From the NCBI GenBank assembly GCA_958295785.1, contig OY282377.1:1254394-1318393 (forward strand): a stretch of 64,000 nucleotides of DNA, written 5' to 3'. Below, in pieces: positions 8,596 to 49,422 of this stretch. The position numbers and the translations under genes are program-made. Positions within the stretch are counted from its first letter, which is position 1; each line of letters opens with the position of its first letter. The stretch is from an uncultured Latescibacterota bacterium (GTDB taxonomy: Bacteria > Latescibacterota > UBA2968). Below the pieces are notes generated by a model. The model did no database searches. It was not told the DNA's origin and saw nothing but the letters and a program-made list of their open reading frames with translations.

Positions 8596-9064
8596 TAATA
8601 CTAAATTGATTTTCTGTTGACCTGATGCGATATGCTATGTTGCCAGCAAGCGATTCCTTTGACCTTCCGCAGTCATTCAGATAAACCATGGCAACCAGGC
8701 CATCCCAAAAGACCATCAGATCATGCCATCACGCACAGCGCGCAAGGCCGTCTCGCAACCCACCTCCCTCTTGAAACCCCCCTTGCAGGCCAGCGCATGT
8801 CGTAGTGCGACAAAAGCGCTTTGAGCTGTGCAAGCCTCTCGGCGCATGAGAGCGGCATTTTTTGCCTACTTTTTTTTGCTGTTGAAAAAAAGTCGGTCGC
8901 CGCACGCCGTAGGCACAGGCGTAGCCAACGCATCGAAGGCAACCCACGAAGAGTTAGGACCAAACGCTTGAGACAAGCAACGCATGAGTGCTACGGAACG
9001 TCTGTTCCTCATTCCTCCCTGATGGGAGGCAAGATACGGACAAATAAAAATCAAATTGGTATAA
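8596..9064 (-). mobile_element. MITE-like element, copy A (469 bp)
   Basis: One of three related dispersed elements (with 27744-28213 and about 32365-32695). The ends are imperfect inverted repeats: TTATACCAATTTGATTTTTA at one end and TAATACTAAATTGATTTTCT at the other, both read inward. The interior has a long hairpin, ACTTTTTTT and AAAAAAAGT arms around a six-base loop, and the palindromic GTAGGC...GCCTAC module. Open frames cross it but shift between copies, so coding is doubtful. No transposase is carried. It abuts the permease start and creates a false N-terminal extension there. Confidence 0.75.
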
Positions 9065-14836: not shown

Positions 14837-15898
14837 ATGGACAAATTACACAATCAACCCAATGCACAAGTGTTCGATATGTTTTGTAGCATTGGCGGCT
14901 TGACCTACGGGTTGCAGCGGGCTGGCATCTCGGTCAACGCGGGGCTGGACATTGATGGTTCGTGCCGTTTCGCCTACGAAAAAAACTGCGAGGCGACTTT
15001 TGTTGAAGCGGATATTCGGGAAATCTCTTTTGCGGATGTTGCAACCTATTTTAGTGATGCGGAATATCGCGTACTGGTCGGCTGCGCGCCTTGTCAGCCG
15101 TTCTCCAGCCATACGAAATTGAGGTCTTATCAAGCGGATGCGAGATGGAATCTGATCGATGAATTTCTGCGAGTAATCCTCGAGGGTCGGCCGGAGATCG
15201 TTTCAATGGAAAATGTGCCCCAACTCATGGATAAACCCATTTACGATAAATTTAAGCGCGAGTTGACCGATGTGGGGTATCAAATTTCCGATGGCGTTCT
15301 ATCCTGTGCCCAGTTCGGCGTTCCGCAAAGTCGCTCCCGTTTGGTTATGCTGGCGTCTTTGTTGGGACAGATTGATATGCCGAACCCCACAACCCATAGC
15401 CACCCAACAGTAAGACAGGTAATCGGGCACTTAGAGCATCTCGAGCAGGGGCAATCAAGCGCGACCGATCCCCTGCATGTTTGCTCTCGATTAGCACCGA
15501 TCAACCTAAAACGCATCAGAGCGTCAAAGCCTGGGGGGAGTTGGCGCGATTGGCCGGCGGAATTATTGCCCAATTGCTACAAAAAGGCCAGCGGCTCGAC
15601 CTATGGAAGCGTCTATGGCCGTATGCAGTGGGACAAGCCCGCGCCGACGCTGACCACGCAGTTCTATCGCTATGGCACCGGACGTTATGGCCATCCCGAA
15701 CAAGACAGGGCCTTGAGCTTTCGGGAAGGCGCGATCCTCCAAACCTTTCCCGAAGAATATCAGTTTATCGCACCGGGCGAGAAAGCGTCCTTCTCGAAAA
15801 TTGGCCGTCAAATCGGCAACGCGGTTCCGCCATCTTTGGGGATTGCGATTGGCAAAACGATTATAGACCATCTGCGAAAGAGGGAAAAGAATGCCTAA
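14837..15898 (+). CDS. DNA (cytosine-5)-methyltransferase
   Basis: A 353-residue C5 methyltransferase that methylates cytosine in a specific DNA sequence. Motif I is FDMFCSIGGLTYGL (13-26), motif IV contains the catalytic Cys in GCAPCQPFSS (C86), motif VI is ENV (125-127), motif VIII is QSRSRLVML, and the C-terminal motifs IX/X are present (PAPTLTTQFYRYG, then GRQIGNAVPP). All catalytic residues are intact. Its last 8 bases overlap the next gene (ATG at 15891), implying translational coupling with the ATPase/nuclease. It probably protects host DNA from that partner. RBS GGAGG lies 7 bases before the ATG. Confidence 0.95.
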   Translation: MDKLHNQPNAQVFDMFCSIGGLTYGLQRAGISVNAGLDIDGSCRFAYEKNCEATFVEADIREISFADVATYFSDAEYRVLVGCAPCQPFSSHTKLRSYQADARWNLIDEFLRVILEGRPEIVSMENVPQLMDKPIYDKFKRELTDVGYQISDGVLSCAQFGVPQSRSRLVMLASLLGQIDMPNPTTHSHPTVRQVIGHLEHLEQGQSSATDPLHVCSRLAPINLKRIRASKPGGSWRDWPAELLPNCYKKASGSTYGSVYGRMQWDKPAPTLTTQFYRYGTGRYGHPEQDRALSFREGAILQTFPEEYQFIAPGEKASFSKIGRQIGNAVPPSLGIAIGKTIIDHLRKREKNA

Positions 15899-17873
15899 AG
15901 AATACACTTTGGACATTGACCTGAATGTGCTCAACCATTTGGGACTGAACCTGTATAGCAACGTCCCCGCTGTGTTGGCCGAACTGATCGCCAACGCTTG
16001 GGATGCCGATGCCGCTCGGGTGGATGTATCTGTAAAAGGACAGGATGAGGGTAAGCAGATCGTCATTCAGGACAATGGTTGCGGGATGAATGACGCCGAT
16101 TTGCGCGACAAATTTTTGGTCGTTGGGTATCAACGCAGAACAAAAGAAAGTGGGGATCTTACGCCGGGTAAGGGACGACCCGTTATGGGGCGAAAGGGCA
16201 TCGGCAAGTTGTCTGTCTTGTCTATTGCGAGAAAAGTCCAAGTCTTCACGAAAAAAGAAAATGCCGCCCCTCTTGCAATTGAGTTAGAGGTCGCAGAAAT
16301 CCAGAAAGCCATAGAAACAAAACAGAAATATCATCCTCCCGCCATCTCTGTGCCGGAGGCAATCGATCTTGGGCATTCTGGCACGGCAATCGTTCTGTCT
16401 GATCTCAAGAAACGGGTGAACGCATCGCTGGATCGATATTTGCGCCAGCGCGTGGCACGCCGCTTTTCGGTTATTGGCGATGGCTTTCAAGTGCTCGTCA
16501 ATGGCAGCGAGATAACGCTAATGGACAGGAATTATTTCGGAAAACTGGAATACGCATTGGTCTATGGCGACGTCGACAAGTCTAAATTTAAGCACGATAA
16601 GAAATATGTCGTTCCACGTCCGGAAAATACAATAGATGAGCAAAAGCGACATGCTGTGCGCGGCTGGATTGGCTTGGTCAAAAAATCGGGATCATTGCAA
16701 GAGGAAGAGGGCGCAGATAATCTGAACAAAATATCCATTCTCGCCCGAGGAAAGGTGGCATTGGAAGACATCTTGGATTCATACCGAGAGGGTGGGCTAT
16801 ATACAAAGTACATCATCGGCGAATTGGAGGCGGACTTCTTGGACTTAACCGAGCAAGAGGACATTGCCACGTCCAGCAGGCAGGATTTTATCCAGAGCGA
16901 CGAGCGATTTGTGCAACTGCGAAAATTTGTCGAACAGGAACTGAAATATTTGGCAAGAGAACGGAGAAAACTGAAGAATGAAGAAGGGGCGAAGAAAGCC
17001 TGTGAAATCCCCGCGATTGAGGAGTGGTACGAGTCGTTGAAGGGAGATACGAAAACCGCGGCCAAAGAATTATTCGGCAGAATTAACCAAATCGCAACCG
17101 ACGATGAACACAGAAAGACGCTGTATAAACACGGCGTATTGGCGTTTGAGCATTTGCATCACAAGGAAAAATTAAGCGAATTGGAACAACTTGAGATCAA
17201 CAATCTCGAGGCTGCCGTAAAGCTCTTTTCCGAGTTGGACGATATAGAAGCATCGTGGTATTACCAAATCACCGAAGGCCGCTTGGATGTCATTAAAAAG
17301 TTATCTGCTGATATTGACGAGGATGTGCTGGAAAAGATCATCCAACAGCATATTTACAACCATCTCTGGTTGCTGGACCCATCGTGGGATAGGGCGACGG
17401 AAACGCCCACCTTAGAGCGGTCTGTTACGACCAGCTTTGATAAAATTTCCGATAAATTGAGCAAGGAAGAAAAGCAGGGGCGTCTGGATATTCGATACAA
17501 GAAAACGTCGGGCAAGCATGTGATTATTGAACTGAAAAGAGGGTCCGTTAGAACTTCAGGCCCACGTCTCATGGAGCAAGTCGATAAGTATATACAGGCA
17601 TTGGATAAACAGTTAAGTGAAGCTAATGTGGATGAGCCTACTATTGAAGCGGTTTGTCTAGTAGGGAGAAAACTCAGTGATTGGGAAACGCCCAAAAGGC
17701 AACGAGAGTCAGAAAGATCTTTGAAAGAAAAACATATCCGCGTGATTACCTATCAGCAACTCATCCGCGATGCAGAAGCGAGCTACCAACAGTACCTCGA
17801 AAAGAGCAAAGACACAGGTCGCATCCGACAACTGATAAATGAGATTGAAACTTATGATGGCCCTCCATCCTAA
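15891..17873 (+). CDS. MORC/MutL-like GHKL ATPase with PD-(D/E)XK nuclease tail
   Basis: A 660-residue protein. The N-terminus is a GHKL (HSP90/MutL-type) ATPase: N-box ELIANAWDADA (31-41), DNGCGM (61-66) and the lid GRKGIGKLSVLSIA (100-113). The middle is helical and charged. Near the C-terminus, LDIRYKK...HVIIELKRG supplies a PD-(D/E)XK nuclease core (D533, E547, K549). MORC-like ATPases coupled to C5 methyltransferases are an established class of predicted restriction systems (Iyer, Abhiman and Aravind). It is likely the ATP-dependent restriction component of that pair, translationally coupled to the methyltransferase. Target and cleavage mode are unknown. Confidence 0.85.
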   Translation: MPKEYTLDIDLNVLNHLGLNLYSNVPAVLAELIANAWDADAARVDVSVKGQDEGKQIVIQDNGCGMNDADLRDKFLVVGYQRRTKESGDLTPGKGRPVMGRKGIGKLSVLSIARKVQVFTKKENAAPLAIELEVAEIQKAIETKQKYHPPAISVPEAIDLGHSGTAIVLSDLKKRVNASLDRYLRQRVARRFSVIGDGFQVLVNGSEITLMDRNYFGKLEYALVYGDVDKSKFKHDKKYVVPRPENTIDEQKRHAVRGWIGLVKKSGSLQEEEGADNLNKISILARGKVALEDILDSYREGGLYTKYIIGELEADFLDLTEQEDIATSSRQDFIQSDERFVQLRKFVEQELKYLARERRKLKNEEGAKKACEIPAIEEWYESLKGDTKTAAKELFGRINQIATDDEHRKTLYKHGVLAFEHLHHKEKLSELEQLEINNLEAAVKLFSELDDIEASWYYQITEGRLDVIKKLSADIDEDVLEKIIQQHIYNHLWLLDPSWDRATETPTLERSVTTSFDKISDKLSKEEKQGRLDIRYKKTSGKHVIIELKRGSVRTSGPRLMEQVDKYIQALDKQLSEANVDEPTIEAVCLVGRKLSDWETPKRQRESERSLKEKHIRVITYQQLIRDAEASYQQYLEKSKDTGRIRQLINEIETYDGPPS

Positions 17874-17931
17874 ATAAAAACACGCCCTGATTTCTCTATC
17901 CTTCCCTCCATCCACGCCAAAGGAGTTCCCC

Positions 17932-19551
17932 ATGCCGACCCTCGACTTCAAAGGCAAGCAACATATCTACGCCCACCATCTCACGGTGCCTTACCGCCCC
18001 ATTGAAGCGGACGCAAGCCGATCTTGCAACCCGTGCGACACTGACGATAACCTCGTCATCCACGGCGACAACCTCCACGCCCTCAAAGCACTGCTACCCC
18101 GCTACGCCAACCGCGTCAAGTGCATCTACATTGACCCGCCGTACAACACGGGCAACGAGAAATGGGTCTATAACGACAACGTGAACAGCCCGCTCATGCA
18201 ACAGTGGCTCGCGGAGAACGGCCCCGTTGACAACGAAGACTTGGAACGCCACGACAAGTGGCTCTGCATGATGTGGCCTCGCCTACACCTACTCAAAGAG
18301 TTGCTGGCAGACGACGGGGTTATCTTTGTGTCCATCGACGACAACGAACAGCACCATTTGCGGATGCTGATGGACGAGATTTTTGGAGAGGAGAACTTTT
18401 TTGCAAGTCTCACACGAAGAGCGATGCACACGGTTCGCAATTCTAGTAAAGACTTCAATCTGAATGCCGATTACGTCTTGGCCTACGCACGGAATAAGGC
18501 GTGGCACGGCAAAGACAAGAGCCGATATATTCGATACATTTCTGATAAGTCCTCAAATTATCCATACGACGCCCACGATGGGCGCGGTAAATACAAACTG
18601 GACCCGCTCCACGCAAGGAACTACTACAAACCATACACCTTTACATTTTCAAATGGCACTGAATGGTCGCCGCCGTCTGGCAGCTATCCCCGCTATTCGC
18701 AGGATAGGTTGCGTCAGATGGAGATTGATGGTCGCCTTGATTTTTCTGGCAATGAACCAAGAGCTAAGCGGTACTTGGCAGAGGTTCAAGAAGGGCAACC
18801 CCCAGATGCTGTCCTTTCGCCAGAGATAGTGGGATTCAATTTAGAAGGAACCCGCACGCTCAGCACGATCTTCGGACAGGGTGGAGTGTTCCCGCAACCT
18901 AAACCGGTAAAACTCGTCCAGTTCTTATTGGAAATACTACGCAACAAGGACGCCCTCGTCCTCGACTCCTTCGCTGGCTCCGGCACCACCGCCCACGCCG
19001 TGCTCGGCCTCAACAAAGAAGATGGCGGCAACCGCAAGTTCATCCTCGTCGAGTGCGAGGACTACACCGACACCATCACCGCCGAGCGCGTGCGCCGCGT
19101 TATCAACGGCGTCCCCGACGCGCGCGACGAATCGTTGCGCGAGGGCCTCGGTGGCTCGTTCACCTACTGCACCTTGGGCAAACCGATTGAGATAGAGGGG
19201 ATGCTCACCGGCGAGGCATTGCCGCCCTACGAATCGCTCGCCGCCCACTTGCTCTATACGACCTCCGGCGTCTCGGTCGGCGCCAGTGAATTAGAGCCGA
19301 AAAACGCTGATGGCCTCTTTCACAGCGACGACAAAACCAACTACTACATGCTCTATAAGCCCGACCTCGACTATCTATGCAGCAACGAGTCCATGCTGGA
19401 CTTGGAACGGGCAGAGCGCATCGACGCCCACAGTCGTCAAGGCGGCAAAAAGGCGATAGTCTATGCAGCGGGCAAATACATGCCCCAGCGCGTGCTCACC
19501 GAGATGGGCATCACATTTTGCCAACTCCCCAACGCCCTGTACGACCGATAG
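17932..19551 (+). CDS. Type III restriction-modification methyltransferase (Mod)
   Basis: A 539-residue N6-adenine methyltransferase of the beta class: the catalytic DPPY (68-71) precedes the AdoMet-binding FAGSG (347-351). Early sequence LVIHGDNLHALKAL and the stretch around IDPPYNTGNEKWVYND are typical of type III Mod subunits and of close type II relatives. The central region (about 150-300) would be the target-recognition domain. The gene begins 58 bases after the ATPase stop and ends 10 bases before the Res start, so Mod and Res form one translation unit. It provides host protection and sequence specificity for Res. Confidence 0.9.
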   Translation: MPTLDFKGKQHIYAHHLTVPYRPIEADASRSCNPCDTDDNLVIHGDNLHALKALLPRYANRVKCIYIDPPYNTGNEKWVYNDNVNSPLMQQWLAENGPVDNEDLERHDKWLCMMWPRLHLLKELLADDGVIFVSIDDNEQHHLRMLMDEIFGEENFFASLTRRAMHTVRNSSKDFNLNADYVLAYARNKAWHGKDKSRYIRYISDKSSNYPYDAHDGRGKYKLDPLHARNYYKPYTFTFSNGTEWSPPSGSYPRYSQDRLRQMEIDGRLDFSGNEPRAKRYLAEVQEGQPPDAVLSPEIVGFNLEGTRTLSTIFGQGGVFPQPKPVKLVQFLLEILRNKDALVLDSFAGSGTTAHAVLGLNKEDGGNRKFILVECEDYTDTITAERVRRVINGVPDARDESLREGLGGSFTYCTLGKPIEIEGMLTGEALPPYESLAAHLLYTTSGVSVGASELEPKNADGLFHSDDKTNYYMLYKPDLDYLCSNESMLDLERAERIDAHSRQGGKKAIVYAAGKYMPQRVLTEMGITFCQLPNALYDR

Positions 19552-19561
19552 GGAGGTCAAC

Positions 19562-22102
19562 ATGCTCGAATTGAAAATGTATCAACTCAACGTCCTCGAT
19601 CATTTTAGCCGCTATTTGGACGCCCTCAAAGAAGCGCGAAATGCGTCGGAGACCGCGCTGGAGGCGTTGAAACAGGCAGGCGTTGATAGTCCCGATGAGA
19701 TTCGCAACTACCCGCAAAAGGCGTGGCAAAAGCTGAAGGACAGCGGCTATGTCGCGGAAGAATACGTCAGCCGCACGGACGATGCGAACCGGCCGATTCC
19801 GCACCTCTGCTTCAAAGTGCCCACGGGCGGCGGCAAAACCTTTCTCGCCACCGCCGCTTTGGAACGCCTCCACCGGCAGACCGGGCTGACCTTGTGGATC
19901 GTGCCGAGCAAGGCCATCTACGCCCAAACCAAAGCCGCCTTGTGGAATCGGGAACATCCCTATCGCCAAATGCTGGAGCGGGCGAGCGGTGGTCGCGTCA
20001 AAATGCTGGAAAAGGACGACCCGTTCAACCGCGACGACATCGCCAACTACCTGTGCGTGATGCTTCTGATGCTACCGGCGGCAAACCGGCGAAAGAGCCG
20101 AGAGTTTCTGCGTATGTTTCGGGATTCAGGGCGTTATCCGAGCTTTTTCCCCGACGATGACGATGTCTTCGGCGACGCCTGCATGATGCACGCCTATCCC
20201 GATCTCGAATGCCATTCTCAAGGCGGCGCGATCAAACACAGCCTATTCAACGTGTTCAAAATCCTGCGTCCGGTGGTCGTTCTCGACGAAGCGCACAAGG
20301 CTTACGGCGCGAAAAAGCGGGAGGCCAGCGAGGAATTTGCCCGCTCCATCAGCCGCCTCAACCCGCGCCTCGTCATCGAACTCTCGGCGACTCCGAACCG
20401 AGGCATCAGCAACCTGCTCGTGGATATCGAAGGCCCGGACCTCAAAAAAGAGGAAATGATCAAGTTGCCCGTGCAGGTGACATCATTTCCCAATGCCGAG
20501 TGGCAATTGACCCTGAGCCAAGCGGTCGATGAACTCGAGCGTCTCCAAACAGAGGCCGCCGCACTCGAACACAGCACGAGTCGCTATATCCGCCCCATCG
20601 CCGTTGTGCGCGTCGAGAGAACGGGCAAAAACCAGCGCGATGGCGAGCGCGTTCACGCCGAGGATGTGCGGGAATATCTCGCGCAAAACCTCGGCGTGCC
20701 CGCAGACGCGATTCGCGTCAAATCCGCTGAAAACGACGAACTCGGCCGCGAAAACCTGCTCTCCGAATTGTCGCAAGTCCGGTGGATCATCACCAAATCG
20801 GCCCTGATGGAGGGGTGGGATTGCCCGTTTGCCTATCTATTGGTGATGTTGGACAACACGCAGGCGCAGCGGGCCATTACCCAACTCGTGGGCCGGGTGA
20901 TGCGGCAGCCACACGCGCAACGCACCGACCGAGAAGCCCTGAATCAGTGCTATGTCTATTGCAACAACACCGACGTCGGCACTGTGGTCGAGCAGGTCAA
21001 AAATGGCTTGGAAGCCGAAGGACTGACCGGCTTGGGCGACGAAGTGATGGGCGCATCGCAAGCCCGGCAACCGGGCGAAGTGCAACGGCAAACCGTGCAA
21101 CGCCGTGCGCCCTTTCGCAATCGGGATATCTTTTTGCCGCTGGTGCTCCACAAGAACGGCAACCGTTGGGTTCAACTCAATTACCAAGCGCACATCCTGC
21201 CGCATATCAACTGGTCGGCCATTGAACCGCCCGACCCGCGAGCATCTGCCCCGGATGGCGTTATACGGCAATCGGCAGTGGTCGATGTCGGTCGCACACC
21301 GCCCATTTACCGCGCCGACAAAGAGCTGTACATCGACAAAGCGTTTCATGTAACCGACTTTGCCCGCCGCCTATCCGATATTGCCCCGAATCAGTGGCAC
21401 GCCGCCCGCATTGCCCGCCGCCTGAGCGAACGGCTCAAAGCAGGCGGCGAAACCGACGCGGATATCTATGACCGCCGCTCGTATCTGGCCCACCTCTTGC
21501 GGGAGCATGTCAAAAAGGAAGTGGAAAAGCAGGCCGAGCAACTCTTTCGCCAAAAACTGCACAACCGAGAAATCCGCTTTGATTTGGAGACGGATCAACC
21601 CAATTTTCGCATGTTGGAACACTGCGAAATACAGGTGCGATCCGACGATAGACCGCTCCTAAAAAGGTATGGCGAGCCTTTGCAGTTGAGCCTGTTTGAA
21701 CCGCTGTACGAGCGGTATTTCGACTCTGAATTGGAAAAGAAATTTGCCTATTACCTCGACGAGCAAAAGGCACTGCACTGGTGGCATCGGGTGGCGGTGC
21801 GTCAACAGGGCGAGTACTATGTGCAGGGCTGGAAACAGGAGCGCATTTATCCCGACTTTGTCGCCATGGCCGGCGAGATTGCCGGAGTGCCGCAACTGCT
21901 GATCTTCGAGACCAAGGGCGAACACCTGTGCGGCAACCCGGACACCGAGTACAAGGAGAAAGTATTGCAAACGCTCGAAGGCGCGTTCAACACCGCCGGC
22001 GCGATGAAGGTGTGCGAGGGGTCGGCCCAAAGCATCTTTCAGTTGGTATTCAGCGAACGCGAATTTGCGGAAATATCGGCGCGGCTGAACGGTCAATATT
22101 AG
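19562..22102 (+). CDS. Type III restriction enzyme Res subunit (helicase-nuclease)
   Basis: An 846-residue SF2 helicase-nuclease. Walker A is PTGGGKT (87-93), Walker B is DEAH (242-245), motif III is SAT (275-277), and a motif VI-like QLVGRVMRQ follows. The C-terminal endonuclease core is YPDFV...LIFETKG (D765, E783, K785). All catalytic motifs appear intact. I use the ATG at 19562 with GGGAGG just upstream, rather than an in-frame start inside mod. Together with Mod it should cleave DNA lacking methylation at paired sites in an ATP-dependent way. It ends 26 bases before the right 204-bp repeat. Confidence 0.92.
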   Translation: MLELKMYQLNVLDHFSRYLDALKEARNASETALEALKQAGVDSPDEIRNYPQKAWQKLKDSGYVAEEYVSRTDDANRPIPHLCFKVPTGGGKTFLATAALERLHRQTGLTLWIVPSKAIYAQTKAALWNREHPYRQMLERASGGRVKMLEKDDPFNRDDIANYLCVMLLMLPAANRRKSREFLRMFRDSGRYPSFFPDDDDVFGDACMMHAYPDLECHSQGGAIKHSLFNVFKILRPVVVLDEAHKAYGAKKREASEEFARSISRLNPRLVIELSATPNRGISNLLVDIEGPDLKKEEMIKLPVQVTSFPNAEWQLTLSQAVDELERLQTEAAALEHSTSRYIRPIAVVRVERTGKNQRDGERVHAEDVREYLAQNLGVPADAIRVKSAENDELGRENLLSELSQVRWIITKSALMEGWDCPFAYLLVMLDNTQAQRAITQLVGRVMRQPHAQRTDREALNQCYVYCNNTDVGTVVEQVKNGLEAEGLTGLGDEVMGASQARQPGEVQRQTVQRRAPFRNRDIFLPLVLHKNGNRWVQLNYQAHILPHINWSAIEPPDPRASAPDGVIRQSAVVDVGRTPPIYRADKELYIDKAFHVTDFARRLSDIAPNQWHAARIARRLSERLKAGGETDADIYDRRSYLAHLLREHVKKEVEKQAEQLFRQKLHNREIRFDLETDQPNFRMLEHCEIQVRSDDRPLLKRYGEPLQLSLFEPLYERYFDSELEKKFAYYLDEQKALHWWHRVAVRQQGEYYVQGWKQERIYPDFVAMAGEIAGVPQLLIFETKGEHLCGNPDTEYKEKVLQTLEGAFNTAGAMKVCEGSAQSIFQLVFSEREFAEISARLNGQY

Positions 22103-25767: not shown

Positions 25768-25844
25768 CGGAGCGTAGCGCAGCTCGGTAGCGCACCATCT
25801 TGGGGTGATGGGGGTCGCTGGTTCAAATCCAGTCGCTCCGACCA
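25768..25844 (+). tRNA. tRNA-Pro (GGG)
   Basis: Full cloverleaf: acceptor CGGAGCG/CGCTCCG, D-arm GCGC...GCGC, anticodon stem CCATC/GATGG with loop TTGGGGT (anticodon GGG), and TpsiC arm GCTGG TTCAAAT CCAGT (the 3' arm makes a G-T pair). CCA is encoded (25842-25844). Confidence 0.95.
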
Positions 25845-25846
25845 TA

Positions 25847-25893
25847 AAACAAAGGGGGTTATGCGATGAGGCATAACCCCCTTGTTTTGTACT
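25847..25893 (+). terminator. Terminator after tRNA-Pro
   Basis: ACAAAGGGGGTTATGC pairs with GCATAACCCCCTTGT around a short loop, followed by TTTTGT. It is a strong intrinsic terminator, and its A-rich 5' side could make it work in both directions. Confidence 0.85.
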
Positions 25894-25975
25894 TGCCAAA
25901 ACGGGGATCATCTCTTAGATAAATGTACAGTGTAATCGCGATCTATTCCCCAATCCTCAAAAGGAGATTTGTGCC

Positions 25976-27688
25976 ATGTTAGATACGTTTTCAAGCGACA
26001 TAACCGCTACGACTCAATTGCGGTTCGCGGCTATCTTCACGTTTATGGATATCGACTATATCCAGACAGTGGTCAAACGCGCGGTTCTGTCACACAAGAA
26101 GGCGTCGAAAGAAGCGCGGGGGTTGTTCGAGTCCGCAGTGAACAAACCAGGGCTGGTGAAAGTGTCCCGGTTTCCCAATCAGCCCGCGAAGGCACCGCCG
26201 CCTTTTCTCGTAGAACCCGTTTTGAGGGCCGTGATTCGGTCGGACAAGTTGGCGGGTGCGGTTCTAAAAATCTGGGCCGAGTCCCACGAAGCACTCGGCG
26301 AAGTGGTCGTGAAGCATTTGGGCAACTTGGCCATGCCGGCCGAGTATCCCGATTTTTTGGAGAATCGATTCCGAAGTTCGTGGTTTAGCGATGCATGGAC
26401 GCGCGAGCGGGATAAAATTCTCGAACAACACAGTGCGTTTAAGAAAGATGATGTCGCCCTGATGCTGTGCTATGTGTCGGGTAAAATCCCCGGGCCTCGG
26501 GAAAGCGCGAAAAACGAAGTGCTGTCGCGTTGCCTCAAATATATGCGGGCATTGCCGGCCAATGCGCCGGAATGGGAACGGGGGATTCCAGATTTTGTCG
26601 CAGAGCTCAACGCCATCAGAGAGGTGAAATCAACGCAGCGCAATCAAGCGGCTGATATTGACGCCGCGATAGCCGAGATCAAGGATGCGTTTTCAGTGGC
26701 GTTGGCATTTTTTCAGCGGGATGCTACGTCTTGGTCCGTGGCGCATCTCGATCCCGACGCCGACCTGGTAGAGGTGCTTCAAGAGATAACGGATTTGCAG
26801 TCGTTGCTGGCTGAGTATCAACCGATTTCCGGCATGGCTTCTGTTTTGAGCGAAGAGCGGGTGAGAAGGCAGAAGCGGGAGGGGTTGGAGAATCGCATCT
26901 TGCCGATTATGGATCGCATAGACCAACTGATGTGCGGCGATCCCGAATCAGGTGAGGACCCACTGCTGGCAGAATTGCGGGGAAAGAAAGAACAACCGCC
27001 GGAGGATGAAAAGCGAGCAGATCAGCCCGGTGACGCCCAAGTTGCCGAACAGACGGATGAAAGTCGTGCGTTTTCCGATGAGGATTACGAAGCGCTGCAA
27101 TCGGAAAACCAACACCTCGAACGCGAGATCAAATCGCTACGAGACAAGTTGCGCGAGATTCAAAATGAGATGGAGAGCTGGCGCGTGGCCTATATTGAGG
27201 CGGCGAGCAAGGCGAAGGCAAGCGCGGAAGAAGATGAAAATTTGTCCATTGAGAACGTGCATGACGTTGTGGAACTCGCCAAAGAAAAGTACGACGACAG
27301 GCTTTTATTTCAACTCAATGCGAAGTCGCAGGTCGAAGACAATCCCTTCAGGCATCCCAAAGCCGTGTGGGACGCGCTGACATGGCTGGCGACCACGTAT
27401 TACGAGTACCGCAAGGGCGAGCGCGAGTTGCCGAACATCGATCAGTCGGTGCGCGAAGCCTGTAAGTGGTGGTACAGAGGCCACCAGAGCAATATGACGA
27501 TGAACAAGTACAAAGACTGGTACACCACCAAAGTCAATGGGCAGGTTTGCTGGCTGCATACGCATATCGGCACGGGGCGCAATAAAAATGCGCGTTTCAC
27601 CATTCGGATCGGCTTTGACTGGGACAAGAACAGCGACCGCGTGATCGTCGGTTTCATCGGTCAACACCAACAGACGGATGCGACGTGA
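25976..27688 (+). CDS. Uncharacterised coiled-coil protein next to tRNA-Pro
   Basis: A 570-residue protein that I do not recognise. Residues 1-330 are mostly helical with no familiar motif. About 340-425 is acidic then strongly coiled-coil (QSENQHLEREIKSLRDKLRE). The C-terminal 130 residues form a distinct domain with conserved-looking Trp and aromatic residues (ACKWWYRGHQSN, WYTTKVNGQVCWLHTHIGTG) ending in a beta-rich ARFTIRIGFDWDKN and VIVGFIGQHQ. RBS AAGGAG lies upstream. It lies alone between a tRNA and MITE copy B, a typical accessory-gene setting, so a defence-related or mobile origin is plausible but unproven. No transmembrane segment or signal peptide is seen. Confidence 0.6.
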   Translation: MLDTFSSDITATTQLRFAAIFTFMDIDYIQTVVKRAVLSHKKASKEARGLFESAVNKPGLVKVSRFPNQPAKAPPPFLVEPVLRAVIRSDKLAGAVLKIWAESHEALGEVVVKHLGNLAMPAEYPDFLENRFRSSWFSDAWTRERDKILEQHSAFKKDDVALMLCYVSGKIPGPRESAKNEVLSRCLKYMRALPANAPEWERGIPDFVAELNAIREVKSTQRNQAADIDAAIAEIKDAFSVALAFFQRDATSWSVAHLDPDADLVEVLQEITDLQSLLAEYQPISGMASVLSEERVRRQKREGLENRILPIMDRIDQLMCGDPESGEDPLLAELRGKKEQPPEDEKRADQPGDAQVAEQTDESRAFSDEDYEALQSENQHLEREIKSLRDKLREIQNEMESWRVAYIEAASKAKASAEEDENLSIENVHDVVELAKEKYDDRLLFQLNAKSQVEDNPFRHPKAVWDALTWLATTYYEYRKGERELPNIDQSVREACKWWYRGHQSNMTMNKYKDWYTTKVNGQVCWLHTHIGTGRNKNARFTIRIGFDWDKNSDRVIVGFIGQHQQTDAT

Positions 27689-27743
27689 GGCAGTGGAGGG
27701 TGATCAGTCCCCCTCCACCCCCGGAAAGGCGAAGAGCGAGAGG

Positions 27744-28213
27744 TAATACCAATTTGCTCTCAAGTTGTCCGTATCCTGCCTCCCCATCAGGGATGAATGA
27801 GGCACAGGCGTTCCGTAGAGATCATGGGTTGCTCGTCTCAAGCGTTTGGCCCTATAGCATCGTTTGTTGCCTTTGATGCGTTGGCTACGCCTGTGCCTAC
27901 GGCGTGCGGCGACCGACTTTTTTTCAACAGCAAAAAAAAGTAGGCAAAAAATGCCGCTCTCATGCGCCGAGGGGCTTGCACAGCGCAAATCGCTTTTGTA
28001 ACAGAACGACATGCGTTGGCCTGCAAAGAGAGTTGCAAGAGGGAGGTTGGTTGCGAGACAGCCTTGCGCGCTGTGCGCGATGGTTTTGTCTGATGGCCTT
28101 TTGGGATGGCATTTTTGCAATGGCTTCTTTGAATGACTGCGTAAGGTCAAGGAGATCGCTTGCTGGCAACATGTCGCATTACATCAGGGCAACAGAAAAT
28201 CAATTGAATATAA
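27744..28213 (+). mobile_element. MITE-like element, copy B (470 bp)
   Basis: Plus-oriented copy of the element at 8596-9064. It starts TAATACCAATTTG and ends CAATTGAATATAA. It has the hairpin ACTTTTTTT/AAAAAAAGT near 27917-27940 and the palindrome GGCTACGCCTGTGCCTAC near 27882. Similarity to copy A extends over essentially the full length. No target-site duplication longer than TA is evident. Confidence 0.75.
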
Positions 28214-32364: not shown

Positions 32365-32695
32365 TTCGGCGACCTACTTTTTTTCACCAGCAAAAAAAAG
32401 TAGGCGAGCGGGGTACAACTGCCCCAGCAGTTCAAAAATGCCGCTCTCATGCGCCGAGGGGCTGGCACAGCGCAAACCGCTTCGTTGCACACACGACATG
32501 CGTTGGCCTGCGAAGGAGGTTGCAAGAGGGAGGTTGGTTGCGAGACGGCCTTGCACGCTGTGCGTGATGGCTTTATCGGAGGGTCTTTTGGGATGGCCTG
32601 GTTGCAATGGCTTCTCTGAATGCCTGGGCAACGTCAAGGGAATCATTTGCAGGTAGCATATCGCATCAGGTCAACAGAAAATCAATTTAGTATTA
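32365..32695 (+). mobile_element. MITE-like element, copy C (5'-truncated)
   Basis: Matches copies A and B from the CTACTTTTTTT hairpin to the end (ATCAATTTAGTATTA), but the first 160 bases are missing. About 29 bases containing GGGGTACAACTG have been inserted just after the hairpin, so another repeat family is nested in this copy. The rest of the 32304-32795 gap holds GC-rich hairpin repeats (32740-32775) and no gene. Confidence 0.65.
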
Positions 32696-45504: not shown

Positions 45505-47459
45505 TTTGTTTGGGTCATTGAAATTCATGCTTTTGCTTTTCTCTCGCGCATCGGGGCCTCGATTTGCAATGCGACAATATCCGCGTCGTGATATTGCTGG
45601 TGGCGCACAGACAAGGCGAAGTGCCGCAGCAATCGTAGCGAGATTTCGTGCTCGAGCGGTGCATCGGTGGTCTGTTCCGTGAGGAGAGTCATGCGATCCT
45701 CGATATTCCCGTCGCCAGTTGCCGCGATAAATTCCAGAAATGCGGTGCGCTCATCGCTGCGCGCGATCAACAGCAGGCGTTTTGCCACTCGTTCGCCCTC
45801 ATCTTGCTGGATGAGGAGCAAGATGGTCTCTTCGGCAGCGAGGCACAGCCGATCCGCCATTTCCGCATTCCAACCCCTGCGGGCGACAAATTTTTCCAAG
45901 AATACCCTGATCCGGGGCAACGCATCCACCGTTAGTTCGGTCTCGATGCGCTGTGGCCGCGGCCCCATCAGTTCCATGAACAGGGTCAGCAGAATCGCCG
46001 TAAGCCCCCCGGCCGTCATGCCATTGCCGAGCAAAGCGTTCCACCATTCGCTTATGTAGTCCGCGAAAATGACCTGATTTTGGAAGCCCACGCCAACCCA
46101 GAACGCGATCCCGGCCACGGTCGCTTTGCGGTAATCCACGCCATCTTGAACCACGATTCGCATGCCCAGCACAAAGAGCAGGGCAAACAGCACAGTCAAA
46201 TAGGCCGCGGCCACAGGATTGGGAATTGCCAAGATCAGGGCGGCCACTTTGGGCAAAAAGGCCGTCGCCACAAAGACCGCGCCGATGCACACACCCACGC
46301 CGCGCGTAGCAACGCCGGTGAGTTCTGTGATGGCAACGCCGGACGAGTAGGTGGTGTTGGGCACAGTGCCCACGAGGCCACACAGCAGGTTGCCCAGGCC
46401 ATCTGCGGTGACCGCGCCTTGCACAGCGCGAAAGTCCAGCGCACGGTTTGCGCGCCAAGAGACCCTTTGAATGGCGATGGCATCGCCGATTGTTTCGATA
46501 GCCCCGACCATTGTCACAAAAATGAAGGCGGGCAGGAGCGACCAGAAAACAGGGCCAAAGCCGAGGTCAAAGCCCGGCCAACCGCCGCCTTTGGGAATGC
46601 CAATCCACGACGCGTCAATAACGCTCTGGACGTCGTACAGGCCAAAGAACGAAGCCGCAATGCACCCCGCGACAAGCCCGATGAGGAGCACCCAAAGACG
46701 CCACACGCCCGAAACCCGAAGCACGAGCACCACGATGACGAACAGGGTTGTACTGGCAATAGCAAGCGCGGCAACAGGCGGCGTGCCTTCGGGCACATCG
46801 GTCAACATGTCAAAAACAATGGGCATAACGGTCACGGAGATCAGCATGATCACGGTGCCGGCCACGGTGGGCGTGATGATCCGTCGCAGCAGGGAAAGGC
46901 GCGCCGAAAACGCGAATTGGAACAGGGACGAGATGACGACGAGGGTTGCCAGCATCGCCGGCCCCCCATCGGCAAGCGCGGTGACGCAGACCGCGATGAA
47001 CGCGGGCGACGTGCCCATCAGGAGGATATAGCCCGCGCCGATACGCCACACGCGCCCGACTTGTATCACCGTGGTCAGGCCACAGACGACCAGTGCCCCA
47101 AAGACCGCCCAAGACAAATATATCTCGCTCTCGCCTGCGGCCCGCACCACGATGACGGGTATGAGCACAACGGGCGCGATGGTGAGCATCGCGGCCTGAA
47201 ACCCGAGTGCAAAGGTGATGGTGTGCGGCAGTCGTTCGTCGAGTTCGTAGAGGATGGGTTGCTCGAGGCGGCTGGATTCGGATGGCATGGCGGAAATCCT
47301 TTCTACGAATCTACGGAATGGGGTACAACGGGCCGTTTTTATTGAGGGCGAGCACAGGGGCATCGCCCCTACATCCGCGTCATCCGCGTCATCCGTTTAA
47401 TCCGTGATCTGCCTTTGGAGTGGCTGGGCGGGGACTGACCACCGACCACCGATTTTGGG
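45505..47459 (-). repeat. Tandem duplication, unit 1
   Basis: First unit of a tandem duplication of 1,955 bp; the second unit is 47460 to about 49422. Each has one complete permease gene plus its downstream TTTGTTTGGGTCATTGAAAT and upstream repeat-rich spacer. The upstream spacers differ by about 40 bp, one hairpin-repeat unit. Confidence 0.9.
45525..47288 (-). CDS. NCS2-type xanthine/uracil permease with ATPase-like tail, copy 1
   Basis: A 587-residue inner-membrane protein. Residues about 1-430 are a nucleobase-cation symporter 2 core with many transmembrane segments (FALGFQAAMLTIAPVVLIPV, the NCS2-like GLLCGLVGTVPNTTYSS-type segment and IGAVFVATAFLPKVAALILA). The last 140 residues are cytosolic and resemble a serine-kinase-type HATPase (anti-sigma/RsbW fold): RIRVFLEKFVARRGWNAEMA, LCLAAEETILLLIQ. 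The usual Asn of the N-box and the DxGxG box are not clear, so ATP binding is doubtful. The ATG at 47288 has AAAGGA upstream. Substrate is probably a purine, pyrimidine or related compound. Confidence 0.82.
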   Translation of the reverse strand: MPSESSRLEQPILYELDERLPHTITFALGFQAAMLTIAPVVLIPVIVVRAAGESEIYLSWAVFGALVVCGLTTVIQVGRVWRIGAGYILLMGTSPAFIAVCVTALADGGPAMLATLVVISSLFQFAFSARLSLLRRIITPTVAGTVIMLISVTVMPIVFDMLTDVPEGTPPVAALAIASTTLFVIVVLVLRVSGVWRLWVLLIGLVAGCIAASFFGLYDVQSVIDASWIGIPKGGGWPGFDLGFGPVFWSLLPAFIFVTMVGAIETIGDAIAIQRVSWRANRALDFRAVQGAVTADGLGNLLCGLVGTVPNTTYSSGVAITELTGVATRGVGVCIGAVFVATAFLPKVAALILAIPNPVAAAYLTVLFALLFVLGMRIVVQDGVDYRKATVAGIAFWVGVGFQNQVIFADYISEWWNALLGNGMTAGGLTAILLTLFMELMGPRPQRIETELTVDALPRIRVFLEKFVARRGWNAEMADRLCLAAEETILLLIQQDEGERVAKRLLLIARSDERTAFLEFIAATGDGNIEDRMTLLTEQTTDAPLEHEISLRLLRHFALSVRHQQYHDADIVALQIEAPMRERKAKA

Positions 47460-49422
47460 TTTGTTTGGGTCATTGAAATTCATGCTTTTGCTTTTCTCTC
47501 GCGCATCGGGGCCTCGATTTGCAACGCGACAATATCCGCGTCGTGATATTGCTGGTGACGCACAGACGAGGCGAAGTGCCGCAGCAATCGCAGCGAGATT
47601 TCGTGCTCGAGCGGTGCATCGGTGGTCTGTTCCGTGAGGAGAGTCATGCGATCTTCGATATTCCCGTCGCCAGTTGCCGCGATAAATTCCAGAGATGCGG
47701 TGCGCTCATCGCTGCGCGCGATCAACAGCAGGCGTTTTGCCACTCGTTCGCCCTCATCTTGCTGGATGAGGAGCAAGATGGTCTCTTCGGCAGCGAGGCA
47801 CAGCCGATCCGCCATTTCCGCATTCCAACCCCTGCGGGCGGCAAATTTTTCCAAGAATACCCTGATCCGGGGCAACGCATTCACCGTTAGTTCGGTCTCG
47901 ATGCGCTGTGGCCGCGGCCCCATCAGTTCCATGAACAGGGTCAGCAGAATCGCCGTAAGCCCCCCGGCCGTCATGCCATTGCCGAGCAAAGCGTTCCACC
48001 ATTCGCTCATGTAGTCCGCGAAAATGACCTGATTTTGGAAGCCCACGCCAACCCAGAACGCGATCCCGGCCACGGTCGCTTTGCGATAATCCACGCCATC
48101 TTGAACCACGATTCGCATGCCCAGCACAAAGAGCAGGGCCAATAGCACAGTCAAATAGGCCGCAGCCACGGGATTGGGAATTGCCAAGATCAGGGCGGCC
48201 ACTTTGGGCAAAAAGGCCGCGGCCACAAAGACCGCGCCGATGCACACACCCACGCCGCGCGCCGCAACGCCGGTGAGTTCCGTAATGGCAACGCTGGACG
48301 AGTAGGTGGTGTTGGGCACAGTGCCCACGAGGCCAGACAGCAGGTTGCCCAGGCCATCTGCGGTGATCGCGCCTTGCACAGCGCGAAAGTCCAGCGCCCG
48401 GTCTGCGCGCCAAGAGACCCTTTGAATGGCGATAGCATCGCCGACTGTTTCGATAGCCCCGACCATTGTCACAAAAATGAAAGCGGGCAAGAGCGACCAG
48501 AAAACAGGGCCAAAGCCGAGGTCAAAGCCCGGCCAACCGTTGCCTTTGGGAATGCCAATCCACGACGCTTCGATAACGCGCTCGATATCGTACAAGCCAA
48601 AGAACGAAGCCGCAATGCACCCCGCGACGATCCCGATGAAGGGCACCCAAAGACGCCACACGCCCGAAACCCGAAGCACGAGCACCACGATGACGAACAG
48701 GGTTGTAATGGCACTGGCAGGCGCGGCAACAGGCGGCATGCCTTCGGGCACGTCTGTCAACATGTCAAAAACAATGGGCATAACGGTCACGGAGATCAGC
48801 ATGATCACGGTGCCGGCCACGGTGGGCGTGATGATCCGTCGCAACAGGGAGAGGCGCGCCGAAAGCGCGAATTGGAACAGGGACGAGATGGCGACGAGGG
48901 TTGCCAGCATCGCCGGCCCCCCATCGGCAAGCGCGGTGACGCAGACCGCGATGAACGTGCCCGACGTACCCATCAGGAGGATGTAGCCGGCGCCGATACG
49001 CCACACGCGCACGGCTTGTATCACCGTGGTCAGGCCGCTGACGACCAGCACCCCAAAGACCGCCCAAGACAAATATATCTCGCTCGCGCCTGCGGCCCGC
49101 ACCACGATGACGGGTATGAGCACAACGGGCGCGATGGTGAGCATCGCAGCCTGAAACCCGAGTGCAAAGGTGATGCTGTGCGGCGGTCGTTCGTCGGGTT
49201 CGTAGAGGATGGGTTGCTCGCGGCGGCTGGATTCAGATGGCATGGCGGAAATCCTTTCTGCGAATCTACGGAATGGGGTACAACGAGCCGTTTTTGTGGT
49301 TTTGGGGGTTGGGTGGGGACTGAGCACCGACCCCTGATTCGGGCGAGCACGGGGGCATCGCCCCTACATCCGCGTCATCCGCGTCATTCGTTTAATCCGT
49401 GATCTGCCTTTGGAGTGGCTGG
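47460..49422 (-). repeat. Tandem duplication, unit 2
   Basis: Second unit of the duplication. The two coding regions have the same length and line up without gaps at an offset of 1,955. High identity implies recent duplication or ongoing gene conversion. Confidence 0.9.
47480..49243 (-). CDS. NCS2-type permease with ATPase-like tail, copy 2
   Basis: A 587-residue near-duplicate of the 45525-47288 gene, same direction. Differences are scattered single residues, for example PSESSRREQ against PSESSRLEQ near the start, ASAITTLF against AIASTTLF in the centre, and KFAARRGW against KFVARRGW in the tail. Both frames are intact, so both products can be made. The family and tail description is as for copy 1. 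Whether the copies differ in substrate cannot be seen. The ATG at 49243 has the same AAAGGA site. Confidence 0.82.
   Translation of the reverse strand: MPSESSRREQPILYEPDERPPHSITFALGFQAAMLTIAPVVLIPVIVVRAAGASEIYLSWAVFGVLVVSGLTTVIQAVRVWRIGAGYILLMGTSGTFIAVCVTALADGGPAMLATLVAISSLFQFALSARLSLLRRIITPTVAGTVIMLISVTVMPIVFDMLTDVPEGMPPVAAPASAITTLFVIVVLVLRVSGVWRLWVPFIGIVAGCIAASFFGLYDIERVIEASWIGIPKGNGWPGFDLGFGPVFWSLLPAFIFVTMVGAIETVGDAIAIQRVSWRADRALDFRAVQGAITADGLGNLLSGLVGTVPNTTYSSSVAITELTGVAARGVGVCIGAVFVAAAFLPKVAALILAIPNPVAAAYLTVLLALLFVLGMRIVVQDGVDYRKATVAGIAFWVGVGFQNQVIFADYMSEWWNALLGNGMTAGGLTAILLTLFMELMGPRPQRIETELTVNALPRIRVFLEKFAARRGWNAEMADRLCLAAEETILLLIQQDEGERVAKRLLLIARSDERTASLEFIAATGDGNIEDRMTLLTEQTTDAPLEHEISLRLLRHFASSVRHQQYHDADIVALQIEAPMRERKAKA

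What the first reader, a model, noticed from the sequence alone, without database searches (positions are those of the whole stretch)
25976..27688. Unrecognised coiled-coil protein in a tRNA-adjacent accessory slot
A 570-residue protein with a separate aromatic-rich C-terminal domain sits alone between tRNA-Pro plus terminator and a MITE-like element. tRNA 3' flanks are common integration sites, and the acidic hinge plus coiled coil suggests a modular sensor or effector. I cannot match the C-terminal domain to a named family.
Basis: inference. Interest (0 to 1): 0.5.

Follow-up and report, generated by a model that had tools for sequence, protein, structure and literature searches.

The report
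Lone two-module bacterial defence protein candidate
A single gene behind a tRNA gene in an uncultured bacterium fuses a helical domain and a coiled coil to an unnamed tail domain that recurs at the end of several suspected anti-virus proteins, and the tail weakly resembles small RNA-cutting toxins, so the gene may be a one-piece virus defence with its own toxin.

Summary
The 570-aa ORF is real, single copy and alone behind tRNA-Pro(GGG). Its last ~145 residues are a module shared with the PADLOC candidate family HEC-07 (E 3.6e-16), two DrmE_C-bearing proteins and short plasmid proteins; no Pfam model covers it. Its first ~315 residues match, outside the genus, the N-terminus of a 1925-aa AAA NTPase of another phylum, encoded in a cluster with DSR2 and a type IIG restriction enzyme. 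Relatives of that NTPase are encoded directly before both DrmE_C proteins that carry the tail, so both halves point to one kind of defence cassette. Among 11 genomes of the genus the gene is intact behind the same tRNA-Pro in 5, interrupted in 1, a 40-aa scar in 2 and absent from the site in 3; it evolves faster than its neighbour. The tail's modelled fold is closest to RelE/HigB toxins, but weakly (Z 4.0; profile probability 3-17%); H530, R544 and H564 are kept in 24-25 of 26 sequences. Best reading: a single-gene defence protein whose helical part senses infection and restrains a RelE-like RNase tail. Defence association is fairly well supported; RNase fold and activity are inferred. New variant of a known kind.

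The parts
25768..25844 (+). tRNA-Pro (GGG), fixed left border of the slot
   Evidence: ARAGORN; the same tRNA starts all 11 slots of the genus
25854..25888 (+). intrinsic terminator-like hairpin (GGGGGTTATGC/GCATAACCCCC, then T-rich) after the tRNA
   Evidence: read directly; similar hairpin visible in the 11 slots printed
25961..25966 (+). ribosome-binding site AAGGAG
   Evidence: sequence
25976..27688 (+). 570-aa two-module protein (the finding)
   Evidence: dN/dS 0.20-0.32; one match in its own genome
26045..26920 (+). N-terminal helical domain (residues ~24-315), shared with the N-terminus of a 1925-aa AAA_22 NTPase (L110)
   Evidence: profile E 5.5e-21; BLASTP 26% over 306 columns, E 2e-17
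26930..27073 (+). acidic hinge, residues 319-366
   Evidence: 29% D/E, net -8; variable length in congeners
27074..27211 (+). coiled coil, residues 367-412
   Evidence: heptad pattern; weak coiled-coil type Pfam matches below their cut-offs
27251..27685 (+). C-terminal module, residues 426-570, shared with HEC-07 and others; H530, R544, H564 kept in 25, 24 and 25 of 26
   Evidence: model mff4186e68643
   Evidence: at least 40 places in the genome, most at 82-90% identity
14837..22102 (+). nearby restriction island: cytosine methylase, GHKL-type REase_II, type III Mod and Res; 3.9 kb away, separated by the mla-like operon
   Evidence: ORFs; PADLOC REase_II E 1.2e-90 for 15891-17870; the other three named by eye from sequence

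Best explanation
A single-gene anti-phage (or anti-mobile-element) protein. The N-terminal helical domain, hinge and coiled coil sense infection, oligomerise and hold the tail inactive; the C-terminal module is the effector, most likely a RelE/HigB-like (BECR-fold) RNase that stops translation when released. Shown: the two modules, their conservation, their links to defence genes, the accessory pattern. Inferred: RelE-like fold (about 0.55), RNase activity (about 0.4), sensing by the N-terminal part (about 0.4).
For: Tail matches HEC-07 (PDLC04161 E 3.6e-16; three further HEC-07 models) and NsnC (1.3e-7) of PADLOC; without the coiled coil it still hits a plasmid protein at 7e-9. The same module ends two DrmE_C-bearing proteins, one of them (L067) followed by DrmA, and an HEC-07-like protein (L081, likeness by eye) beside a type II methylase and restriction enzyme. 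N-domain fused to an NTPase in a cluster with DSR2 (PADLOC E 2e-168) and a type IIG enzyme; relatives of that NTPase directly precede both DrmE_C-module genes. Presence, interruption, scars and absence; dS 0.65 against 0.19 for the adjacent gene in one pair. Enzyme-like H530, R544, H564 kept in 25, 24, 25 of 26 sequences. Fold: of 12 VIA rows the 8 best are toxins (4 named RelE, 1 HigB2, 2 Helicobacter toxin entries and PfiT, which I recall as RelE/ParE superfamily), Z 4.0-2.8, next row 2.6; against 28 RelE/ParE plus 30 HigB-like sequences joined in one profile, 0 of 100 column shuffles scored as high, and the relaxed alignment is collinear over the whole domain.
Against: Fold evidence is weak: mean pLDDT 64, residues 77-114 of the model under 50; Foldseek's best PDB match has E 3.9; VIA Z 4.0 is below the level (8) under which the tool warns of mere common arrangements. 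hhalign probabilities are 7.8 (RelE) and 4.6 (HigB) with all 26 tails, 7.1, 2.7 and 16.8 (joined) with the degenerate L113 row dropped, and 1.5, 0.0 and 11.9 in global mode; against HigB alone 1 of 100 shuffles scored higher, and the best shuffle of the joined set came close (21.7 against 22.9). Default alignments cover only 18-34 columns. No Pfam RelE-clan match. H530 lies in an insertion relative to RelE. No convincing antitoxin neighbour, so autoinhibition must be assumed. The window's own restriction genes are 3.9 kb away, behind a conserved operon. The N-domain was seen on an NTPase in one genome only among 386 searched (a second hit, G135, is a short coiled-coil match).
Confidence: 0.45

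Rival explanations
1. The tail is a non-enzymatic adaptor (nucleic-acid or protein binding) that docks different defence proteins onto a common partner such as the NTPase; the window protein is a sensor or scaffold.
For: The module ends proteins with unrelated N-termini including DrmE_C proteins encoded directly after the NTPase, as a docking tail would; fold match weak.
Against: H, R and H kept in 24-25 of 26 look more like an active site; no partner gene is evident next to the gene in the window, and in the congeners the ORFs that follow it differ.
Confidence: 0.27
2. Orphan remnant of a larger NTPase cassette: the gene is a split-off piece that needs a trans partner elsewhere in the genome or is decaying.
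For: N-domain otherwise found on an NTPase, scars in G004 and G010, interrupted copy in G003, frameshifted second copy in G010.
Against: dN/dS 0.20-0.32 over six copies and an intact frame in the window argue against decay in these genomes.
Confidence: 0.16
3. Lineage-specific gene with a cellular role unrelated to defence, held in a syntenic slot of the genus.
For: 5 of 11 genomes keep it intact behind the same tRNA next to a conserved operon.
Against: Broken or absent in 6 of 11 slots, defence neighbours of both modules' relatives, dS excess over the neighbour gene among congeners.
Confidence: 0.12

Closest known systems
HEC-07 (Hma-embedded candidate 07, PADLOC-DB PDLC04158-04161)
   Same: Coiled coil plus C-terminal module, similar length (profiles of 526-557 positions)
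   Different: HEC-07's N-terminal ~340 residues are not matched; the window protein has another N-domain (match covers profile positions 344-553)
RelE/ParE-HigB (BECR-fold) toxins
   Same: Best, weak structural neighbours and collinear weak profile alignment; R544 on the Arg of the YRI strand and H564 on the basic residue after the last strand
   Different: Fused to a 425-aa N-terminal part, no convincing antitoxin gene, ~20-residue insertion with conserved H530, no Pfam match
PtuZ of ptuXYZ (Gerdes 2025, PMC11980606; outline, passages, sections 20 and 26 seen)
   [quoted passage not shown] no sequence of PtuZ was compared here
DISARM DrmE
   Same: Two DrmE_C-bearing proteins carry the same tail (L064, L067)
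   Different: The window protein has no DrmE_C match; no drm gene was recognised beside it by eye

Membership tests
HEC-07 | full-length match to the family profile | tested here: not met
   best stretch is residues 355-570 on positions 344-553 of 553; the G046 protein L052 matches 7-552
HEC-07 | C-terminal module | tested here: met
NsnC (PADLOC) | full-length match to the family profile | tested here: inconclusive
   289-567 matches 62-312 of 316, E 1.3e-7, but the stretch includes the coiled coil; no paper on NsnC among those listed
RelE/ParE superfamily (BECR fold) | match to a Pfam family of the clan | tested here: not met
   none among the 25 of 27 families shown for the whole protein nor for the tail at E up to 10, nor for 12 tails at E up to 1
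RelE/ParE superfamily (BECR fold) | BECR fold | tested here: inconclusive
   VIA Z 4.0, rmsd 3.5 over 80 residues to RelE 4fxh_B; Foldseek best E 3.9; model pLDDT 64
RelE/ParE superfamily (BECR fold) | RNase or gyrase-poisoning activity | not testable with these tools
   needs expression
type II toxin-antitoxin module | adjacent antitoxin gene | tested here: inconclusive
   only 131 bases separate tRNA and gene; after it a 63-aa GTG frame (27685-27876) overlaps the stop codon but runs into the dispersed repeat and looks non-coding
tRNA-integrated mobile island | repeat of the tRNA 3' end at the far border | tested here: not met
   no exact repeat of 11-25 bases in 11 slots over 454-4957 bases each; a distant border would be missed
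DISARM DrmE | DrmE_C domain (PF24957) | tested here: not met
   not among the 25 of 27 Pfam families shown at E up to 10

The most novel reading that the evidence does not exclude
The tail is an unrecognised BECR-fold RNase family that several defence systems (HEC-07, a DrmE/DISARM variant, NTPase cassettes and this one-gene form) share as an interchangeable C-terminal effector; the window protein is a fusion of the cassette's sensor and effector halves that works alone.
Probability: 0.3. Interest if true: 0.75.

Novelty: new variant of a known kind. Interest (0 to 1): 0.5.

Why it matters
It ties an orphan protein of an uncultured phylum to a candidate defence family and gives that family a testable effector hypothesis with three residues to mutate. 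If right, one toxin-like tail would explain how HEC-07, some DrmE proteins and NTPase cassettes act.

Tried and rejected
Pfam, NCBIfam and PHROGs: weak matches, most of them in the coiled coil, none accepted. Lamassu LmuB and PbeC hits in PADLOC: weak and within the helical or coiled-coil part, rejected. PDB by sequence: nothing convincing. Phage records: no match. N-domain against plasmids: no match. Fold search of the full-length model (pLDDT 49): helical transporters and microtubule proteins, rejected as common helical arrangement; so the N-domain fold stays unknown. Viral structure library: best E 0.68. Viral contigs: of 7 scans, searches gave no relative, 46 and 47 the same contig, pattern scan 65 gave 9 stretches of which 5 carry the module (L091, L092, L094, L096, L099; L092 is the contig of L081) and 4 are chance by translation; one search gave the same five. 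tRNA-attachment repeat: none. G135 hit of the N-domain (E 1.8e-4) is in a 237-aa coiled-coil protein, not counted. The HigB-only profile comparison did not beat all shuffles. My first reading that the G003 copy is merely split by contig ends was dropped: both pieces run into 502 and 201 bases of other sequence, so it is interrupted. Papers: in the PADLOC papers PMC8565338 and PMC9252829 the term HEC does not occur (passages seen); PMC12988326 (passages) states that several Hma-embedded candidates, including HEC-06, were active; YprA (PMC12458937), CoCoNuT (PMC11090510) and PMC11411939 passages only; the Payne 2024 preprint itself was not read. Full-text searches for HEC-07, NsnC (10, 29) and BECR with DrmE (138) listed no description of this module.

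Full report
Observation. It has one match in its own closed 5.66-Mb genome. The only relative that the named genome collection gave is a Candidatus Latescibacterota MAG (L017), identical to the G002 stretch L042.

Distribution in the genus (11 genomes). Behind the same tRNA-Pro: intact in G000, G002, G005, G006, G008 (5); interrupted in G003, where residues 1-438 and 433-570 lie near two contig ends and run into 502 and 201 bases of unrelated sequence (1); only the last 40 residues left in G004 and G010 (2); no match at the site in G001, G007, G009 (3). G001 has an N-terminally shorter copy elsewhere, near a contig end; G010 a frameshifted copy elsewhere; G004 a further fragment. In the 53 other phylum members searched with the HEC-07 model, only G046 has a relative, a full-length HEC-07. 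Between G008 and G009 about 1.9 kb is present or absent between the same borders. The gene's dS exceeds that of the gene just upstream of the tRNA in three congener pairs (0.654 against 0.194, 0.719 against 0.217, 0.461 against 0.223), though hardly in comparisons with the window genome (1.19-1.43 against 0.98-1.20), and its dN/dS is 0.20-0.32 (15 pairs) against 0.08-0.12 (6 pairs). This is what exchange or old alleles at an accessory locus would give.

C-terminal module. PADLOC models of HEC-07 match residues 355-570. The tail without the coiled coil finds a plasmid protein (residues 438-570, E 7e-9) and G046 (449-567, E 1.9e-6). Together with viral-contig, plasmid and unnamed-genome relatives this gave 26 tails, 7 of them from the window's genus. 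L468, L471, H530, R544 and H564 are kept in 24, 25, 25, 24 and 25 of 26; L113 lacks all three polar ones and L090 lacks R544. In the 19 proteins from outside the genus the module ends at or within two residues of the C-terminus (these are rows the profile was built from). Architectures: HEC-07 (L052 and, partly, L113 by PADLOC; L081, L091, L094, L096, L112 alike by length and by eye, not scanned), proteins of about 350-400 aa on Delftia, Variovorax, Acidovorax, Hydrogenophaga and Cupriavidus plasmids, longer unclassified ones (L086-L090), and two ~940-aa proteins with Pfam DrmE_C above its cut-off (L064, L067). L067 is followed by DrmA; L064's downstream genes were not scanned. No Pfam family covers the module.

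N-terminal domain. A profile of six genomes of the genus finds, among 386 genomes, nine of the genus and two others: G296 (E 5.5e-21) and a weak coiled-coil hit, G135. In G296 it is the N-terminus of a 1925-aa protein with an AAA_22 domain, in a cluster with DSR2 (E 2.1e-168) and a type IIG enzyme; two ORFs, one deformylase-like by eye, lie between DSR2 and the NTPase. BLASTP of the two gives 26% identity over 306 columns, E 2e-17. That NTPase has relatives on 27 of 72,556 plasmid records; the NTPase ORFs of L064 (E 3e-76) and L067 (E 2e-64) overlap the start of the DrmE_C-module ORFs by four bases. Four other relatives inspected show neither the N-domain nor the module in the stretches fetched, and the N-domain is absent from L064 and L067 too. 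So both halves of the window protein are tied, each by independent similarity, to the same kind of cassette. This is a two-step inference, not a shown interaction.

Fold and mechanism. AlphaFold2 with six sequences gave a partly usable tail (mean pLDDT 64, pTM 0.68) and a poor full-length model. VIA-align ranks RelE first (4fxh_B, Z 4.0, rmsd 3.5 over 80), and all eight rows at Z 2.8 or more are small toxins (four named RelE, one HigB2, PfiT, two Helicobacter entries), but Z is low and Foldseek's own best E-value is 3.9. hhalign against 28 RelE/ParE and 30 HigB-like sequences found in relatives gave probability 7.8 and 4.6 with all 26 tails (30 shuffles each reached at most 2.5 and 1.1; N-domain control 0.1). 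With the degenerate L113 dropped it gave 7.1 (RelE), 2.7 (HigB) and 16.8 (both joined, tried after the first result), with 0, 1 and 0 of 100 column shuffles scoring as high and reversed profiles at 0.4-0.8; global mode gave 1.5, 0.0 and 11.9. Default alignments span 18-34 columns; the relaxed one is collinear from the first strand to the end and puts R544 on the Arg of the YRI strand and H564 on the basic residue after the last strand. I recall, without a call, that Arg61 and Arg81 of E. coli RelE are catalytic. With no convincing antitoxin gene beside it, an RNase tail would have to be held off by the rest of the protein; the helical domain, acidic hinge and coiled coil are the obvious candidates. 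That step is inference.

Against. The RelE reading rests on weak, partly linked evidence (model and profile use overlapping sequences). The window's restriction island at 14837-22102 is near but separated by a conserved operon, so it counts little. The defence neighbourhoods were met in a handful of loci, not surveyed against controls. I saw no paper that shows a function for HEC-07; PMC12988326 says only that several HECs, including HEC-06, were active (passage).

Verdict. Observation confirmed; 'modular accessory protein' supported; 'unmatched tail' and 'tRNA integration' not supported. A new architecture built from two defence-linked modules; interest moderate, since the effector hypothesis is cheap to test. 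The mended G003 count leaves the odds as they were, since one interrupted copy bears equally on the accessory reading and the decay rival.

Noticed in passing
27743-28205; also 8598-9062 and 32367-32693: Dispersed ~465-bp repeat with at least 40 scored places (317 first-look candidates, 40 scored) mostly at 82-90% identity in the own genome; a MITE-like or similar element in high copy number.
   Followed up: partly
14837-22102: Restriction island: cytosine methylase, GHKL-type REase_II (PADLOC E 1.2e-90) and type III Mod/Res (three named by eye), upstream of the mla-like operon where the congeners' ORF pattern differs.
   Followed up: partly
L064:14-6405 and L067:56-6435: DrmE_C proteins carrying the HEC-07-type tail directly after an NTPase related to the one in the G296 DSR2 cluster; the NTPase has no PADLOC match. 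A possible undescribed DISARM variant.
   Followed up: partly
L110:32-15856: Cluster of type IIG enzyme, DSR2 (SIR2), giant AAA_22 NTPase with the window's N-domain, and a 432-aa ORF, in a genome of another phylum.
   Followed up: partly
45525-49327: Two adjacent 612/615-aa transporter-like ORFs with nearly the same start, an apparent tandem duplication.
   Followed up: no
G045:C69:60972-61247: HigB-like Pfam match inside an 858-aa open frame, another possible multidomain toxin.
   Followed up: no
L043:6542-7044 and L044:11349-11548: The G003 copy of the gene is interrupted at about residue 435 by unrelated sequence at two contig ends, probably an inserted element.
   Followed up: partly
genus of the window: Many HigB-like and RelE/ParE toxin genes: up to 9 HigB-like matches per genome.
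   Followed up: no
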